From: Salarchaeum japonicum
Lineage (GTDB): Archaea > Halobacteriota > Halobacteria > Halobacteriales > Halobacteriaceae
Assembly (NCBI RefSeq): GCF_020614395.1
Contig: NZ_CP085324.1
Span: 873,564-937,563, forward strand
Direction of reading: 5' to 3'
Length of the DNA: 64,000 bases
Part shown: positions 18,631 to 25,547 of the stretch, piece after piece
How positions within the stretch are numbered: position 1 is the first letter of the stretch
Layout: the number at the start of each line of letters is the position of its first letter
Made by a program: the position numbers and the translations under genes
The notes under the pieces: generated by a model
The model's database searches: none
Told to the model about the DNA's origin: nothing
Seen by the model: only the letters and a program-made list of their open reading frames with translations

Positions 18631-19899
18631 GTGCCTGAACGTCCCTCCAGGAGAACACTGCTCAAGTCGGTCGGTACGCTTTCTCTCCCGGCGGTCAGCG
18701 CGTCTCCAACGCGTGCACGTACCGGTGATCCTGCCTCTGATTGGTCCGAGTTCGGATATGATTCGGGTAATTCGAGCCACAAACCGGCAGCTACTGCTCC
18801 GACCGCTCTCTCGACGCGCTGGACTGCAGCGGTCGATGGCCGAATCGACGCACCGCTCGTCACCGGGGATTCGCTGGTGTTCGTCGCGACGCGGGCGAAC
18901 ACGCTGTACGCGCTCGATACGGCCGATGGAACGGTAGAATGGACGGCCGCTACCAGTGGCGGGCTGATGGCGGCACCGCTCGTCGCGGATGGAACCGTGT
19001 TCGCGAGCGCGACGGACGGCTCCGTCTATGCGTTCGACGCGGAAACCGGCTCCCAGGAGTGGCGCGTCCAACCGTGGGAGAAGGGAACCGCCAATACGTC
19101 CGGAATCAAAACGGACGGACACTCGCTGTACCTCACGCTCGCGAACAGTGGTGTGTACGCCATTGACCCGGCTGACGGCGGCGTCCGCTGGACGCAACCG
19201 GCGATACCCACTACCGAAACGACGCCGGCACTCAGCGATGGAACGGGATACGTCGGTGCGCGCGACGACAGGCTGTACGCGTTTTCGACGAATGACGGGA
19301 CTATCGACTGGTCATTCGAGGCGGATGGCCGCGTCGAATCCGCACCCGCAGTCGCCGACGGAACGGTCTACTTCGGGACGATAGCGGGAACCGTCTACGC
19401 CCTCGACGCCGAGAGCGGGGAGCCACAGTGGTCGTCCAAGACCGGCCACTGGGTCACGGGCTCGCCGGCAGTGACCGACGACACGGTGTTCGTCGGAAGC
19501 TACGACCATCACGTGTACGCGCTCTCCCGAACCGACGGCTCCGAACAGTGGTCGTACCGGACTGGAATGTACGTCTCAGCCGGCCCCACCGTCTCGGCCG
19601 ACAGCGTCTACGTTGGCAGTGAAGACGGACGCCTCTACTCGCTGGACGCGATCGACGGCACGGCGTTCTCGACGACGGACATCGGTTTCCGCGTCCGAAC
19701 ACCGCCCGCGATAGCGAATAACTCGATTTACGTCGGTGATACCGAAGGGAACGTCGCCGCACTAGAGCCAAGACAGACCGAGGAAACCACGTCTCTCGAG
19801 AAGTGGCTGCTTCCCGGACTCCTCACGAGTAGCGGGTTGGTCGCGGGAGCCTATCTCTGGCTGCGCCGCGAGCGCTCGCCCGCCGACTCACGTGAGTGA
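18631..19899 (+). CDS. Exported PQQ-type beta-propeller repeat protein
   Basis: 422 residues from a GTG start. The N-terminus PSRRTLLKSVGTLSLPAVSA is a Tat-like signal (twin Arg, hydrophobic stretch). The body has about seven PQQ/Trp-docking repeats with GTVYALDAESGEPQW-type blades (for example SVYAFDAETGSQEW and TLYALDTADGTVEW). A hydrophobic segment near the C-terminus (KWLLPGLLTSSGLVAGAYLW) followed by basic residues is a membrane anchor, so the propeller faces outside. There are no PQQ-dehydrogenase catalytic residues. These proteins are probably binding or scaffold proteins. Codon use is less GC-biased than its neighbours, which suggests acquisition. The second copy-type gene is at 30745-31947. 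Confidence 0.85.
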   Translation: MPERPSRRTLLKSVGTLSLPAVSASPTRARTGDPASDWSEFGYDSGNSSHKPAATAPTALSTRWTAAVDGRIDAPLVTGDSLVFVATRANTLYALDTADGTVEWTAATSGGLMAAPLVADGTVFASATDGSVYAFDAETGSQEWRVQPWEKGTANTSGIKTDGHSLYLTLANSGVYAIDPADGGVRWTQPAIPTTETTPALSDGTGYVGARDDRLYAFSTNDGTIDWSFEADGRVESAPAVADGTVYFGTIAGTVYALDAESGEPQWSSKTGHWVTGSPAVTDDTVFVGSYDHHVYALSRTDGSEQWSYRTGMYVSAGPTVSADSVYVGSEDGRLYSLDAIDGTAFSTTDIGFRVRTPPAIANNSIYVGDTEGNVAALEPRQTEETTSLEKWLLPGLLTSSGLVAGAYLWLRRERSPADSRE

Positions 19900-19914: not shown

Positions 19915-22341
19915 CTAGTCCGCGTCGGCGGACACCGTCTGCCGGGGCGGGTCGGCCACGGGTTCGTCTTCTGCGTCCCATTCGAGGTCGCCCTGGTAGT
20001 GGAGCGGCGCGTTCTCCTGTTCTGGGTCGAGGACGGTGAGGTGTATCCAGCCGTTGTCGAGGAGCCGGGTGAGTTCGTCGTGGTCGCGGAGGAGGTCGGT
20101 GACGCGGCCGACGGGCGCGTGAACGACGGCGGTGAGGCGGAGCGGCTGGTGGTAGGGGGTGTCGGCGTCGGCGTACAGCGACTGGAGGGGGAGGCCGGTC
20201 ATGAGGTCGCCGCCGTTCCCCTGGAACACGCCGACGTTCCCGACGGGGTTCTGGGTCACCTTCGACCCGCTCCCGTACACCGCGTTGTCCACGGTGGCGA
20301 AGTAGTACTGGTTGTTAATCCACTGCGTGACGACGAGCGGGCCGGTGAGGATGGCTTCGAGGGCGTCGCCGTCCGCGTCCGCGCGCCAGTCGTAGGAGTG
20401 GAGGAACGTGCGGCCGTCGAGGTCGGCGTCCGCGGTTAGCTCGCGCGGCCCGACGACGAACGAGGCGTTCCCGGCCAGCCCCCACTCGGGCCGGGTCTCC
20501 GCCCAGTCGGCGGCCCGGCGCTCGGTCTCCCGAACGCCGTCCGCGGCGTCGCCGGCCATCGCGTCCGCCCGCTCCGCGGCCGCGCGCTCCCGGGCGTCCG
20601 CGAGGTCGCTCCGCACCCGTTCGAGGTCGTCTGCGTGCGTCTCGGGCACGCGCTCGTCGAAGAGCGTGATGTCGTCGGTGGTGGTGTCGTGTTCGGCGGC
20701 GACGAAGACGGTGTCCGTCGGGATGTCGAACCCGCGCTCGCGGAGTTCCGCCCTGACGTCGGTGTCGTTGCAGATGACGGCGAGGACGCGGGCGTTCGGG
20801 CCGCCGGGGTTTCCGGCGCACGCGCCGCAGTCGAGGCTCGAATCGAACGGGTTGTTCGTCGTCTGGCTCGCGTGGCCCGTGAACACGACGAGGCGAGCGA
20901 ACTCCTCCCAGCCCATCAACTCGAACGCGTTCTGGGCGTACTCGACCTGCTCCTCGAACGACAGGCCCTCGCGGAGCGCGTACACCCCGTCCGGGTTGTA
21001 GTCGATGGATGGCTCGCAGAACTCGCGCTCGTCGGGCGCGTAGTCGGTGTCGTGGAGCGCGTCGTACACTCTGCCGGGGAGGAGCGTGCGCGCGGCGAGC
21101 GCCGCGCCGTACCACGGGCCGGCGCTCTCCACGAAACTGAACGCGGTCGCCGCGTTCGACTTCAGGCTCTTGAGCACGCTTTGGCCCGCGTCGAGGAGGC
21201 CCCGCCGGTGGTCGTGGCGCTCCCGCGCCGCCCCGGCGTCCGGGACGGGCCGGTCGGTGATGCGGTGCTGGGCGTCCACAATGGGCGGACACGCGTCCCC
21301 GGCGGCGTCCGCGTCGTACCCCTGGTAGCGCATCGGAATCCCGAAGAACCCCGCGTAGCCGTAGGTGTCGTACGCGCCCACGGCTTCGACGTGCCGCCGG
21401 ATGATTTCGGAGCGCGTGTCGATGCAGAACACGAACTGCGCGTCCGGCCGCCCGCGCTCGCCGGATTCGCCGTCCGCGGATTCGTCGGGGTCGGACACCG
21501 CGCTGAGGAGGCGCTCGCGGTGGCTTTCCTCCCACGCGGTCAGCCAGAGTTCGGGGAGCGGAACCCCCGCATCCGCGCCGGTGTCTTCGGTGTCGTCGGG
21601 GCGGAGCGGGGCGTCGAGGCGTTCCGCGAGCAGGAGGCGCACCGCGAGGTACTCGGTCAGCGAGATTGGGTGGGTGGCCTGCCAGGGGTCTGCGTCGTCG
21701 CCCGCGCGTTGCTTGATGAAGCCCGTCCAGCCGGGGAGCGCGGCGAGCTGGTGTTCGAATATCGTCTCCCACTCTCCCTGCGGATACGCGGAGAGCACGC
21801 TCTCAAGCGCGTCTACGGGGGTCTCCGGGAGGTCGGACGGCCGGTCGCAGTCCGGTATCTCGGAGTCGTGGGGAGCCATCTCGCGCCACGCCGCGTAGAA
21901 CCCGGCGTCCCGGTTCGGCATCGACCACTTCGCCTGCCCCTGGTCGAGGAAGGCGGTCAGCCACTTCGACAGCACGCGGTCGACCGCGTCCGCGGCGTCC
22001 GTCTCGGAGCGCGCGCCGGCGTCCGCGGTACCGTCCGCGTCCGCTGCCATCTCGTCGAGCAGGGCGTCCGGCTCCCGAGTGATACCGTGGTCGTCGAGCA
22101 CGCTCGCCAGCACGCCGGGGTCGATTCGGTCGGCCTCCCAGGCCCGCCGGAATATCTCGGGCGCGGGGTAGCCGCGGCCGCCGAACAACTGTTCGGCCTC
22201 CGCGACGGCCTCGTGGAACGGCCGGTCTTCGAACCCGGAGAGGGGGTTCGCGGTGACGAACGAGTGGAGCGGCCAGACCGCACCGACGTTCTCCGCCGCG
22301 CGCTCGATACTGCTCGCGAGGTAGTGGGATTCACGCGTCAT
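19915..22341 (-). CDS. dabA: Inorganic carbon transporter subunit DabA
   Basis: 808 residues, the full family length (DUF2309/UPF0753). The metal site resembles a beta-carbonic anhydrase: C306 and D308 in FCIDTRSE, H490 in FTGHAS and C505 in SSLDCGACAG, matching the zinc ligands of the Halothiobacillus protein. Other conserved blocks are WPLHSFVTANPL near 23 and the C-terminal QSLYADADTPYHQPLRL. DabA is thought to hydrate CO2 vectorially using energy from its membrane partner DabB. The ATG lies 11 nt inside the dabB gene (22331-22341), a typical coupled overlap. Confidence 0.93.
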   Translation of the reverse strand: MTRESHYLASSIERAAENVGAVWPLHSFVTANPLSGFEDRPFHEAVAEAEQLFGGRGYPAPEIFRRAWEADRIDPGVLASVLDDHGITREPDALLDEMAADADGTADAGARSETDAADAVDRVLSKWLTAFLDQGQAKWSMPNRDAGFYAAWREMAPHDSEIPDCDRPSDLPETPVDALESVLSAYPQGEWETIFEHQLAALPGWTGFIKQRAGDDADPWQATHPISLTEYLAVRLLLAERLDAPLRPDDTEDTGADAGVPLPELWLTAWEESHRERLLSAVSDPDESADGESGERGRPDAQFVFCIDTRSEIIRRHVEAVGAYDTYGYAGFFGIPMRYQGYDADAAGDACPPIVDAQHRITDRPVPDAGAARERHDHRRGLLDAGQSVLKSLKSNAATAFSFVESAGPWYGAALAARTLLPGRVYDALHDTDYAPDEREFCEPSIDYNPDGVYALREGLSFEEQVEYAQNAFELMGWEEFARLVVFTGHASQTTNNPFDSSLDCGACAGNPGGPNARVLAVICNDTDVRAELRERGFDIPTDTVFVAAEHDTTTDDITLFDERVPETHADDLERVRSDLADARERAAAERADAMAGDAADGVRETERRAADWAETRPEWGLAGNASFVVGPRELTADADLDGRTFLHSYDWRADADGDALEAILTGPLVVTQWINNQYYFATVDNAVYGSGSKVTQNPVGNVGVFQGNGGDLMTGLPLQSLYADADTPYHQPLRLTAVVHAPVGRVTDLLRDHDELTRLLDNGWIHLTVLDPEQENAPLHYQGDLEWDAEDEPVADPPRQTVSADAD

Positions 22342-23815
22342 TGTAGTTCTCCGCGGTGGTGAGTTCGGTTTCGGGGGCCGGCTGTGAGAGGTTCAGGAGG
22401 GCGACGTAGAGCCGCGTGCTCGATTCGTGCCAGCCGCGTTCGACCGCGAGGTACGCGGCGAGGAAGGCGGCGGCGACGATGCCGTGCACGGCCGAGAGGT
22501 CGGTGGGCGCGTGCGTCATCGGCACGCCCGCGAGTACGGTCGCGACGGCGGTGAACAGCACGCCGTAGACGGCGACGGGGACGACGACGATGACAGGGAG
22601 GACGACGAGCGCCGCGCCCGGGGAGAGGTTCGCGCGTTCGAGCGCGTCGCGGGCCGCGTGGAGCGCCGTCAGGGCGACGAGGCCGGCGAGGACGAGCCCG
22701 GAGTCCGGTTCCGTCCCCTTCCCGGTGAGCGCGACGAACACCGCGCCGCCGACCACCGCGGCCCCGAGGCCGACGACGAGCGACGGGAGCGACGCGCCGC
22801 TCCGGGAGTGCTCGACGGGCGCGGTCTGTTCGACCGCGCTCCCGGAGGAGAGGAACAGGTAGGCCTTGTAGAAGCCGTGGAGGATGAGGTGGGTGATGGC
22901 GGCGGCGAAGAACCCGAGGCCGCACTGAAGTATCATAAAGCCCATCTGGGCGACGGTGGAGCCGCCGAGCCGGCGCTTCACGTCCGGGCGGACGAGCAGG
23001 AGCGCCTGTCCGACGAGGGCGCTCGCGGCCCCGACGACGACGAGCACCGCCATCGCGGTCGGGATGTCGGCGAACACGGGCGCGAAGCGCGCGAGGAGGA
23101 TGCCGCCGGCGTTGACGAACCCGGCGTGCATCAGCGCGGACGCGGGCGTCGGCGCGGTCATCGAGGACAGCAGCCAGTCGTGGAAGGGGAACAGCGCGGA
23201 CTGAATCATCGCCGCGAGGAAGAGGCCCAGGATGGCGAGCCAGGCGACTTCGGGCGAGAGCGTGCCGGCGTGTGCGAGAATCCCCGAAATCGTGGTCGTT
23301 CCGGTCGCCCACGCGAGGAGCGCGAGCGCGCCGGCGAGCGCGCCGCCGCTCGCGAGGAAGTACCGCCGCGTGAGCGTCTCGGCGGCCTGCGCCTGCTCCC
23401 AGCCGCGGGCGTGCCCGATGAGTTCGGCCATCGTCAGTCCCATCGCGACCCACGCGGCGGCGAACAGCGCGACGTGGTCGGCGGCGGCGACGACCATCAC
23501 CGCGAGCGTGAAGCCGAACGTCAGCGCGAAGAGCCGGTCGATGGCGGCGTCCCCGGCCATGTACCGCCGGGAGTAGGAGTGAACGATGCCGCTGAAGAAC
23601 GCGACGGCGACCCAGACAACCGCGGTCAGGCCGTCCACGGCGACGACTCCCGGAACCCGCCACGCGGCACCGTTCGCGACCGAGATGGCGGCCGTCGCCA
23701 GGCTGAGCGCGAACAGCGTCCAGACGGCGGCGGTCGTCGCTCGCGCCACCCCCGAAGCGGACGGCGTCGTCTCCGGGAGCTGTACCGAGTCGTTCGCGCG
23801 TGAGTGTCCGGTCAT
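22331..23815 (-). CDS. dabB: Inorganic carbon transporter membrane subunit DabB (NuoL-like)
   Basis: 494 residues, mostly hydrophobic, with about 13-14 predicted membrane segments. It belongs to the proton-conducting NADH-quinone oxidoreductase/Mrp antiporter superfamily (Proton_antipo_M). Recognisable pieces are FHDWLLSSMTAPTPASALMH, a conserved charged loop carrying the proton-channel Lys/His region, and ITHLILHGFYKAYLFLSSG. With DabA it forms the Dab inorganic-carbon pump driven by ion motive force. The start at 23815 (MTGHSRANDSVQLPE) is preferred over 23893, because the extra 26 residues are low-complexity and the 23815 version gives a normal cytosolic N-terminus. Confidence 0.9.
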   Translation of the reverse strand: MTGHSRANDSVQLPETTPSASGVARATTAAVWTLFALSLATAAISVANGAAWRVPGVVAVDGLTAVVWVAVAFFSGIVHSYSRRYMAGDAAIDRLFALTFGFTLAVMVVAAADHVALFAAAWVAMGLTMAELIGHARGWEQAQAAETLTRRYFLASGGALAGALALLAWATGTTTISGILAHAGTLSPEVAWLAILGLFLAAMIQSALFPFHDWLLSSMTAPTPASALMHAGFVNAGGILLARFAPVFADIPTAMAVLVVVGAASALVGQALLLVRPDVKRRLGGSTVAQMGFMILQCGLGFFAAAITHLILHGFYKAYLFLSSGSAVEQTAPVEHSRSGASLPSLVVGLGAAVVGGAVFVALTGKGTEPDSGLVLAGLVALTALHAARDALERANLSPGAALVVLPVIVVVPVAVYGVLFTAVATVLAGVPMTHAPTDLSAVHGIVAAAFLAAYLAVERGWHESSTRLYVALLNLSQPAPETELTTAENYNDA

Positions 23816-23910
23816 CGTTCGAGTTCCCGCCGCACGGGCCGACACCCCCGCAATTCCAGGTGAGTCGTGAGCGAACTGGCCCGCCTTACCCAACTATACG
23901 AACAGACTGG

Positions 23911-23918
23911 TTATTATA
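23911..23918 (-). promoter_or_regulatory. Possible dabBA promoter
   Basis: On the minus strand cctataataa lies about 95 nt before the dabB ATG in the 175-bp gap between the Lrp gene and dabB, within a markedly AT-rich patch. If used, the leader is about 70 nt, long for a haloarchaeon. Confidence 0.35.
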
Positions 23919-23990
23919 GGCTTTGGTACGACCAAATTGTTCCCTTGGGATTGGGGCGATAACAGGATGTTCGATAATGAAGGAGTGGGG

Positions 23991-24473
23991 TTACTCGTCG
24001 CTCGCCGCGCGCTCCCGGGTGAGGTCGTCGAACGGCGTCGTCTCGTGACTCCGCACGAGCACCTCGTCCGAGACGGTCAACTCCATGTCGAGGAGGGCGT
24101 TCGCGACCGTCGTGATGTCCTCGTCGGTCTCCCCGACGACCGTCACGAGCAGGTTCTCCTCGCCCGTGACCAACTCCTGCACCGACACGACGCCCGGAAT
24201 GTCGAGAATGTCCTGGATGCGCTCGCCGCGCTTCGGAATCGGGGCCGTGCAGAACAGGAGCATCCGGAGCGGATACCCCGACTTCTGGTAGTCCACGTTC
24301 GCGCTGTACCCCTTGATGACGCCCTCGGATTCGAGGCGCTGGATGCGCTTTCGCACCGTGCTCGACGACGCGTCAGTACGGTCGGCGATTTCGGCGGACG
24401 AGAGGTTGCGAGCGTCCTCCTGGAGCGCGTAGATGATCTCTCGGTCGATATCGTCGAGCTCGTACTCGGTCAT
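23991..24473 (-). CDS. Lrp/AsnC family transcription regulator
   Basis: 160 residues. It has an N-terminal winged HTH (YELDDIDREIIYALQEDARN, SSSTVRKRIQRLESEGVIKGY, about 4-58) and a C-terminal RAM/AsnC_trans_reg domain (about 68-140, with VQELVTGEENLLVTVVGETD). These regulators usually respond to amino acids or small metabolites and bind palindromic sites. It lies between the carbonic anhydrase gene (69 bp upstream) and dabB (175 bp downstream) on the same strand, which makes regulation of CO2/bicarbonate uptake a reasonable guess. Confidence 0.92.
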   Translation of the reverse strand: MTEYELDDIDREIIYALQEDARNLSSAEIADRTDASSSTVRKRIQRLESEGVIKGYSANVDYQKSGYPLRMLLFCTAPIPKRGERIQDILDIPGVVSVQELVTGEENLLVTVVGETDEDITTVANALLDMELTVSDEVLVRSHETTPFDDLTRERAASDE

Positions 24474-24542
24474 GCGCTCCGTTTACCCCCGCGCGCATAA
24501 GGCGCTTCGCCTGCCCACGGCCGTCCCGGTCGCGCGGCCGTC

Positions 24543-25223
24543 TCAGTGCGTGACGCGGCGCTGGACGCGCCCCGCGAGGTCGGGATGTCGCTCGCGGAGC
24601 ACCGATGGGTCGCGCTCGCCGTCCACGTTGACCACGTGCAGTTCGCCGCGCTCGCCGTCGTAGGCGTCCTGGAAGTCGTAGACGACGCCCGCGACGGTCG
24701 TGCCGTCCGGCACGTCCTCGCTCTCGCGGAGCGCGCGCACCTGCCGGTCGACGTTGCACTCCACGAGGTCGTTCACCGTGTCCGCGCGCCCGCGGCCGTC
24801 CGGCAGGCGCTCGATGCAGGGTTCGAGTTCGGGCCGCAGGAGGCCGATGCAGTGTCGGATACCGGGCGGTTCGCTGACGACATCGGTCGTGATGGCGTCG
24901 TAGGTGGCGGTGACCGCGCCGCACCCCGAGTGCCCGACGACGACGGCGAGATCGGTGCCGGCGTGTTCGAGCGGGTAGAGCACGTCCCCGGAGACGACCG
25001 TGCCCGCGCCGGTGCGCTGGACGACCCGGTTCCCGATGTTCGAACACGTGAACACGCGGCCCGGTCGGTCGTTCCCCCACATGTGGTCTTGGAGGACGCG
25101 GGAGTCCGAACAACAGACCGTCACCGCCTCGGGACGCTGCACGTCCTGCACGTCGTCGAACCGGTCGCGGAACGCGGCGACGTGCCCGTCGTTCCCGGCG
25201 AGCAGCGCGGCGAGCGTGTCCAT
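24543..25223 (-). CDS. Beta-class carbonic anhydrase
   Basis: 226 residues. Zinc and catalytic motifs: C38-S-D40-S-R42 (CCSDSR), H98 and C101 in GHSGCGAV, and FTCSNIGNRV near 58-67. The Asp/Arg dyad is intact, so an active enzyme is predicted. It interconverts CO2 and bicarbonate in the cytosol. The start at 25223 is chosen within a much longer shadow frame because it directly follows a TATA-like tract and gives a family-length protein. It is first in the CA-Lrp-DabB-DabA cluster, all on the minus strand. Confidence 0.93.
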   Translation of the reverse strand: MDTLAALLAGNDGHVAAFRDRFDDVQDVQRPEAVTVCCSDSRVLQDHMWGNDRPGRVFTCSNIGNRVVQRTGAGTVVSGDVLYPLEHAGTDLAVVVGHSGCGAVTATYDAITTDVVSEPPGIRHCIGLLRPELEPCIERLPDGRGRADTVNDLVECNVDRQVRALRESEDVPDGTTVAGVVYDFQDAYDGERGELHVVNVDGERDPSVLRERHPDLAGRVQRRVTH

Positions 25224-25245: not shown

Positions 25246-25252
25246 GTTAGAA
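25246..25252 (-). promoter_or_regulatory. TATA-like box for the carbonic anhydrase gene
   Basis: tttctaa (minus strand) lies about 25 nt before the ATG at 25223, flanked by GC-rich sequence. Confidence 0.4.
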
Positions 25253-25320
25253 ACCTCGCCCTCCCGCGTCCCGGCTCCGTTCGCGCGCCGTGGGCCGTGG
25301 TACACGTACCCTCGGAAGTG

Positions 25321-25326: not shown

Positions 25327-25352
25327 GTAAACGGGGCGTACGAATGCTTGTA

Positions 25353-25547
25353 ATGGCAAGCGGAAAAGTTGATTTCTTCAACGACACTGGCGGCTACGGA
25401 TTCATCGAGACTGAGGACGAGGACGAGGACGTGTTCTTCCACATGGAAGACGTCGGCGGCCCGGACCTCGAAGAAGGCACTGAGGTCGAGTTCGAGATCG
25501 AGGACGCCCCCAAGGGCCCCCGCGCGAAGAACGTCACCCGCCTCTAA
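25353..25547 (+). CDS. cspA: Cold-shock domain protein
   Basis: 64 residues forming one cold-shock (OB) domain: [19 protein letters not shown] contains the RNP1-like GYGFI block and VFFHMEDV the RNP2-like FFH block. Such haloarchaeal proteins are acidic RNA/ssDNA chaperones. The start at 25353 gives the standard [11 protein letters not shown] opening. Upstream in-frame codons to 25290 are Arg/Gly-rich and not conserved. It is divergent from the carbonic anhydrase gene. Confidence 0.95.

What the first reader, a model, noticed from the sequence alone, without database searches (positions are those of the whole stretch)
19915..25223. Four-gene inorganic-carbon cluster: beta-carbonic anhydrase, Lrp regulator, DabB, DabA
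All four genes are on the minus strand in order, with dabA overlapping dabB by 11 nt. Both enzymes keep their zinc residues (DabA C306, D308, H490, C505; carbonic anhydrase C38, D40, H98, C101). DabAB is known as a CO2/bicarbonate pump in autotrophic bacteria. Beside a cytosolic carbonic anhydrase and a dedicated-looking Lrp regulator in a heterotrophic-looking haloarchaeon, it would more likely feed carboxylases or buffer pH in brine, where CO2 is poorly soluble. The Lrp link is the least described part.
Basis: partly seen in the sequence, partly recalled or inferred. Interest (0 to 1): 0.72.

Follow-up and report, generated by a model that had tools for sequence, protein, structure and literature searches.

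The report
Haloarchaeal CO2-pump operon with dedicated regulator
A salt-loving archaeon carries genes for a membrane CO2-to-bicarbonate pump with a regulator gene next door; almost every relative that has the pump also has this same regulator and the same repeated DNA site in front of the pump genes, which points to an undescribed, dedicated control of inorganic-carbon uptake in archaea.

Summary
The four genes are real and in the stated order: beta-carbonic anhydrase (CA), Lrp/AsnC regulator, dabB, dabA, with metal-site residues intact. DabAB in haloarchaea was already predicted (HVO_2410/2411). The new part is regulatory. Of 242 haloarchaeal genomes, 162 have DabA; the Lrp ortholog occurs in 159 of those and 2 of the other 80. 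It lies codirectionally upstream of dabB in 79 of 80 loci fetched by dabA and 80 of 80 named loci fetched by Lrp. The dabB promoter carries a conserved block, nearly always one copy per genome: a TATA box flanked by 13-bp dyads spaced 30 bp (window 23900-23972), present in 157 of 162 DabA+ genomes and only weakly in 5 of 80 others. This fits a dedicated Lrp acting on one promoter. CA is not a fixed member: the exact four-gene order is rare, but CA recurs near dab in several arrangements (24 of 80 loci, far above chance), and 25 of 27 genomes lacking beta-CA have DabA. Best reading: a CO2-hydrating bicarbonate supply for carboxylases in a heterotroph, switched by a dedicated Lrp. Signal, sign of regulation and pump activity are untested.

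The parts
19915..22341 (-). dabA, zinc-dependent beta-CA-like vectorial carbonic anhydrase subunit
   Evidence: PF10070 889 bits, full length; zinc site, Asp-Arg dyad, finger Glu405 and Leu622 conserved against DabA2 9rd0
22331..23815 (-). dabB, antiporter-like membrane subunit (494 aa, ATG start)
   Evidence: Proton_antipo_M; matches DabB2 9rd0_B at 131 bits; start by comparison with the congener L033
23900..23912 (-). operator-like dyad iii, AACCAGTCTGTTC (inverted copy), just downstream of the TATA box
23910..23919 (-). TATA box CTATAATAAC of the dabB promoter
   Evidence: conserved about 100 nt upstream of the dabB ATG across loci
23930..23942 (-). operator-like dyad ii, GAACAATTTGGTC, at the BRE side of the TATA box; overlaps the perfect palindrome TTTGGTCGTACCAAA (23922-23936), unique in the genome at up to 1 mismatch
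23960..23972 (-). operator-like dyad i, GAACATCCTGTTA, upstream
   Evidence: offsets 18, 48, 78 in the intergenic region, i.e. the three dyads are exactly 30 bp apart
23897..23944 (-). 48-nt conserved promoter block (model R1)
   Evidence: one match in the own genome at E 1.5e-10; 157/162 DabA+ versus 5/80 DabA- genomes
23991..24473 (-). Lrp/AsnC-type regulator, dab-associated ortholog group
   Evidence: HTH_AsnC-type; C-terminal beta-alpha-beta-beta-alpha-beta topology, Foldseek best hits are Lrp-fold proteins; co-occurrence with DabA
24496..24501 (-). TATA-like CTTATG about 27 nt upstream of the Lrp ATG (probable leaderless Lrp promoter)
   Evidence: similar element at the same position in other loci
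24543..25223 (-). beta-class carbonic anhydrase, the only PF00484 match of the genome
   Evidence: Pro_CA 88 bits; own-genome search
25247..25253 (-). TATA-like TTTCTAA about 27 nt upstream of the CA ATG (probable own promoter)
   Evidence: read from the sequence; conservation not tested

Best explanation
This is a haloarchaeal DAB-type inorganic-carbon supply system under a dedicated local Lrp/AsnC regulator. DabA on DabB hydrates CO2 to bicarbonate at the inner membrane face, driven by the membrane potential, so bicarbonate is trapped inside for anaplerotic and biosynthetic carboxylases (inferred from homology). The neighbouring Lrp binds 13-bp dyads spaced 30 bp (three helical turns) that flank the TATA box of dabBA, wrapping the core promoter and switching it with inorganic-carbon or metabolic state. 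I favour repression when carbon is ample, because dyads ii and iii flank the TATA box. CA is an optional partner equilibrating CO2 and bicarbonate in the cytosol and has its own promoter. Shown: genes, catalytic residues, co-inheritance, dyad architecture and near single-copy specificity. Inferred: Lrp binding, sign, signal, transport. The confidence given is for DAB-type carbon supply plus a dedicated Lrp acting on the dabB promoter, not for the sign.
For: DabA family and residues. Lrp ortholog in 159/162 DabA+ and 2/80 DabA- genomes, Fisher p 4e-57 (genomes are related, so the p-value is nominal). Codirectional Lrp upstream of dabB in 79/80 loci fetched by dabA and 80/80 named loci fetched by Lrp. 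In the own genome the next Lrp paralogue scores 118 bits against 330. Promoter block at dabB in 157/162 DabA+ genomes, no DabA- genome below E 0.001; found in 80/80 named loci plus Haloarcula marismortui, absent from three bacterial dab loci. Spacing of 30 bp in 91 site pairs; at least one 29-32 bp pair in 74/80 loci against 0.15 in shuffles, triples in 41/80 against 0. Published Lrp operators are 13-15 bp imperfect palindromes in clusters with two- or three-turn spacing (PMC2995911; PMC10201364). L104 lacks a linked Lrp yet keeps a PWM hit, and its genome G037 keeps the Lrp about 55 kb away. 25 of 27 beta-CA-negative genomes have DabA, nominal p 0.002.
Against: No binding, expression or phenotype data. 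Another regulator could in principle use the same dyads. No such block was found before the Lrp gene itself, although many Lrps autoregulate. Only about half of loci show all three dyads at up to one mismatch. The 48-nt model was trained on loci of the same class, and part of its conservation is the TATA box; G037 and four other DabA+ genomes gave no R1 match. DabAB may be an Na+/HCO3- symporter, as argued for MpsAB, rather than a proton-coupled CO2 hydratase.
Confidence: 0.72

Rival explanations
1. The Lrp is an activator of dabBA, not a repressor: a dimer on dyad ii next to the BRE recruits TBP/TFB, with dyads i and iii helping cooperative wrapping, as for Ptr2, LysM and Ss-LrpB.
For: Archaeal Lrp activators have a constrained dimer site a few bp upstream of the BRE (PMC2995911); dyad ii has about that place and a fixed distance to TATA.
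Against: Dyad iii lies immediately downstream of the TATA box, overlapping its edge, which fits RNA polymerase exclusion as for P. furiosus LrpA.
Confidence: 0.4
2. The complex is a sodium- or cation-coupled bicarbonate importer (MpsAB-like) or serves pH/ion homeostasis in brine rather than CO2 hydration for carboxylases.
For: MpsAB has been argued to use sodium (discussed in PMC13144422); the DabB2 ion pair D185/K235 is replaced in the window DabB.
Against: DabA zinc site, Asp-Arg dyad, finger Glu and Leu are fully conserved with the CO2-hydrating DabA2; position 235 also varies among bacterial DabBs, so it does not diagnose sodium coupling.
Confidence: 0.2
3. The four genes are one dedicated carbon operon with CA as a core member co-regulated by the Lrp.
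For: Same order in the window, L033, L093 and G039; CA near dab far above chance in several arrangements.
Against: CA is unlinked in most genomes; the operator block is found once in the window, at dabB only; CA and Lrp have their own TATA-like sequences.
Confidence: 0.12
4. The regulator is not tied to carbon: it travels with dabBA but responds to an ordinary amino acid.
For: Most characterised Lrps bind amino acids; no ligand data here.
Against: Loss and gain track DabA across the class, and the regulator is retained when unlinked in G037. In DabA-less G129 the ortholog sits beside a CO dehydrogenase. An amino-acid effector reporting anaplerotic status remains possible.
Confidence: 0.25

Closest known systems
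DAB2 (DabA2/DabB2) of Halothiobacillus neapolitanus, PDB 9rd0
   Same: Two-subunit architecture, full DabA length, zinc site, Asp-Arg dyad, finger Glu444 and Leu658 equivalents
   Different: Host is a heterotrophic-looking haloarchaeon; DabB lacks the D185/K235 pair (also variable in bacteria); adjacent regulator is Lrp, whereas two bacterial plasmid loci looked at have LysR
HVO_2410/HVO_2411 of Haloferax volcanii, predicted dabAB (PMC8305020)
   Same: Same predicted transporter pair in the same class
   Different: The passages found concern the transporter only; a full-text search found no paper naming HVO_2412 or HVO_2409, and no description of the regulator or promoter was found
MpsAB of Staphylococcus aureus
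   Same: DAC family in a heterotroph, interchangeable with CA (PMC8552792)
   Different: In Firmicutes MpsAB and CA rarely coexist; here 137 of 162 DabA+ genomes also have beta-CA
Ss-LrpB, Ah-BarR and FL11, archaeal Lrp-type regulators
   Same: Clusters of 13-15 bp imperfect palindromes with two- or three-turn spacing at promoters
   Different: Different motif (GAAC-N5-GTTC type), a different target pathway and apparently one promoter per genome

Membership tests
DAB/DAC inorganic carbon transporter | Full-length DabA (PF10070) with partner DabB encoded next to it | tested here: met
DAB/DAC inorganic carbon transporter | Zinc ligands Cys, His, Cys plus Asp-Arg dyad and finger Glu | tested here: met
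DAB/DAC inorganic carbon transporter | Membrane-potential-dependent CO2 hydration / DIC accumulation | not testable with these tools
   needs uptake or complementation assay
Beta-class carbonic anhydrase | C-x-D-x-R and H-x-x-C motifs, Pro_CA family | tested here: met
   C38, D40, R42, H98, C101; Pro_CA 88 bits
Beta-class carbonic anhydrase | CO2 hydration activity | not testable with these tools
   needs assay
Lrp/AsnC (FFRP) regulator | N-terminal AsnC-type HTH | tested here: met
   PF13404 44 bits over cut-off 27
Lrp/AsnC (FFRP) regulator | C-terminal RAM (beta-alpha-beta-beta-alpha-beta) domain | tested here: inconclusive
   Topology seen in the model and the 42 Foldseek hits at E <= 0.001 are Lrp-fold proteins, but mean pLDDT is 63 and Pfam's RAM model did not match
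Lrp/AsnC (FFRP) regulator | Helically phased 13-15 bp palindromic sites at the target | tested here: met
   sequence only, binding not shown:
   Lrp-dabB-dabA is conserved, the four-gene order was seen in four genomes

The most novel reading that the evidence does not exclude
The dab-associated Lrp is a dedicated inorganic-carbon regulator of haloarchaea that senses CO2/bicarbonate or a direct carboxylation product and wraps the dabBA promoter. It would be a CO2-responsive transcription factor of archaea with a one-promoter regulon, redeployed beside CO dehydrogenase in a lineage that lacks DabA.
Probability: 0.25. Interest if true: 0.8.

Novelty: new variant of a known kind. Interest (0 to 1): 0.56.

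Why it matters
How heterotrophic archaea in brine obtain bicarbonate for carboxylases, and how they sense inorganic carbon, appears not to be described in the library searched. A class-wide regulator-operator-transporter unit with nearly always one operator block per genome gives a clean, genetically tractable test in Haloferax or Haloarcula, and an exact DNA sequence to test for binding.

Tried and rejected
Co-regulation of CA by the same operator: not supported, one hit only in the 64-kb window. DabB D185/K235 loss as a haloarchaeal hallmark of different coupling: rejected, bacterial DabBs vary there too. TTG start of dabB (520 aa): rejected on comparison with the congener. Known structured RNA in the dabB leader: no Rfam match. 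Many weak 'CA-like' ORFs are antisense to Lrp, picked up because one query ORF ran over the Lrp gene; only those with CA motifs were counted. PMC10184468 and PMC8570276, primary DAB papers, are not held. RNA-model E-values are rough by the tool's own statement.

Full report
OBSERVATION. The four minus-strand genes are present at the stated coordinates: CA 24543-25223, Lrp 23991-24473, dabB to 22331, dabA 19915-22341, with an 11-nt dabB/dabA overlap. Families are unambiguous. dabB probably starts at the ATG at 23815, as in the congener L033, where the same four genes occur in the same order. The window is G000:C1:873564-937563 of a 2.34-Mb haloarchaeal genome with one DabA and one beta-CA.

CATALYTIC PARTS. 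Aligned with the solved DabA2 (9rd0), the window DabA has all zinc ligands (C306, H490, C505), the Asp308-Arg310 dyad, the finger glutamate (E405, equivalent to Glu444) and the leucine (L622, equivalent to Leu658) discussed in PMC13144422. All seven positions are invariant in 81 haloarchaeal DabAs. The protein is therefore intact by every residue criterion I could test; activity is not shown.

THE CONSERVED UNIT IS LRP-DABB-DABA. PF10070 matches 162 of 242 class genomes. Around 80 dabA loci from 45 genera, an Lrp homologue lies upstream of dabB on the same strand in 79. The Lrp ortholog (E <= 1e-45) is in 159 of 162 DabA+ genomes and 2 of 80 DabA- genomes. The three DabA+ exceptions (G021, G196, G206) have fragmented assemblies of 120-160 contigs. 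Of the two reverse exceptions, G100 sits at the threshold and G129 is discussed below. Independently, 80 of 80 named loci fetched by an Lrp alignment show codirectional Lrp-dabB-dabA; some of these are the same genomes as the unnamed ones. The Fisher value of 4e-57 ignores phylogeny and is nominal, but 49 of 74 genera carry DabA and the same number carry the Lrp.

OPERATOR ARCHITECTURE. The 175-nt Lrp-dabB gap of the window contains a TATA box (23910-23919) and three 13-bp dyads of the type GAAC-N5-GTTC/GGT at 23960-23972, 23930-23942 and 23900-23912, exactly 30 bp apart. In 80 upstream regions there are 228 such sites (28 expected from shuffles). The favoured spacing is 30 bp (91 pairs) and then 60 bp (29 pairs); 74 of 80 loci have at least one 29-32 bp pair (0.15 in shuffles), and 41 have three in a row (0 in shuffles). 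A 48-nt sequence model of the TATA-flanking part finds, nearly always once per genome, the dabB promoter in 157 of 162 DabA+ genomes; the five matches in DabA- genomes are weak (E >= 0.002). It hits 80 of 80 named loci and Haloarcula marismortui, but none of three bacterial dab loci. The perfect palindrome TTTGGTCGTACCAAA at 23922-23936 is unique in the genome at up to one mismatch. Known archaeal Lrp operators have this form: 13-15 bp palindromes, clustered, two or three turns apart (PMC2995911; PMC10201364). The Lrp gene and CA have separate TATA-like sequences about 27 nt upstream of their ATGs, so CA, Lrp and dabBA are probably not one transcription unit.

REGULATOR IDENTITY. The HTH passes Pfam's cut-off. 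The RAM domain was not detected by Pfam, but a moderate-confidence AlphaFold model (mean pLDDT 63) has the right topology, and the 42 Foldseek hits at E <= 0.001 are Lrp-fold proteins, including a solved halophilic Lrp, 8q90.

CARBONIC ANHYDRASE. CA is an optional companion. CA with intact motifs lies within about 7 kb of dabA in 24 of 80 loci (18 of 45 genera) in several arrangements: convergent downstream, codirectional upstream, divergent upstream and same-strand downstream. Chance would give about 0.5% per genome, so the association is real although the order is not conserved. A further eight loci have a CA homologue between Lrp and dabB that lacks the C-x-D-x-R motif. 27 genomes lack any PF00484 protein; 25 of them have DabA. 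This fits DabAB being able to supply bicarbonate where CA is missing, as for MpsAB in Firmicutes, but unlike Firmicutes (PMC8552792) the two systems coexist in 137 of 162 haloarchaeal DabA+ genomes.

MECHANISM. Most likely DabAB hydrates CO2 vectorially and traps bicarbonate for heterotrophic carboxylases. The type III RuBisCO of this genome may also profit from CO2 but does not by itself imply autotrophy. The Lrp probably wraps the promoter; repression is my preferred sign because the dyads flank TATA on both sides, but activation from dyad ii is almost as likely. The ligand is unknown.

LITERATURE AND NOVELTY. DabAB in haloarchaea was predicted in 2021 (PMC8305020). Full-text searches of the held library found no description of the adjacent regulator or the operator; most subscription papers are not held, and the primary 2019 DAB paper was not available. 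I therefore call it a new variant of a known kind.

EXCEPTION OF INTEREST. G129 lacks DabA and beta-CA yet keeps the Lrp ortholog. There it follows a NarK-family MFS transporter and a Usp gene, beside a nickel CO dehydrogenase catalytic subunit (TIGR01702, 611 bits), and a related promoter element precedes the MFS gene. It is one case only, but it keeps the regulator in a one-carbon context.

Noticed in passing
L041, L053, L065, L066, L070, L086, L092, L101 (between Lrp and dabB): A beta-CA homologue that keeps H-x-x-C but has lost the C-x-D-x-R motif sits between Lrp and dabB in eight loci of seven genera; it could be a non-catalytic sensor or partner protein. Weak operator-like sites precede it in L065 and L101.
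   Followed up: partly
L220:2912-8461 (genome G129): DabA-less genome keeps the dab-type Lrp next to a NarK-family transporter, Usp, a P-loop ATPase and an anaerobic CO dehydrogenase; a related promoter element lies before the transporter gene.
   Followed up: partly
L042, L053, L058, L062, L075 and others, between Lrp and dabB on the opposite strand: An amidohydrolase (PRK07213-like chlorohydrolase family) is repeatedly found between Lrp and dabB in many genera; relation to carbon supply unknown.
   Followed up: partly
L134 (G000:C1:1915048-1915878): The genome encodes a type III RuBisCO (TIGR03326, 620 bits), so it is not free of CO2-fixing enzymes.
   Followed up: yes
window 23816-23896: The dabB transcript is predicted to carry a leader of roughly 70-80 nt whose start is partly conserved in many loci (GGGTA..GACGACC-like), unusual for haloarchaea, where leaderless mRNAs are common. 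No Rfam match.
   Followed up: partly
window 18631-19899 and 25344-25547: Flanking genes: a PQQ-type beta-propeller protein (convergent to dabA) and a cold-shock protein (divergent from CA); a cold-shock gene also lies upstream of Lrp in many f3 (Natrialbaceae) loci.
   Followed up: no
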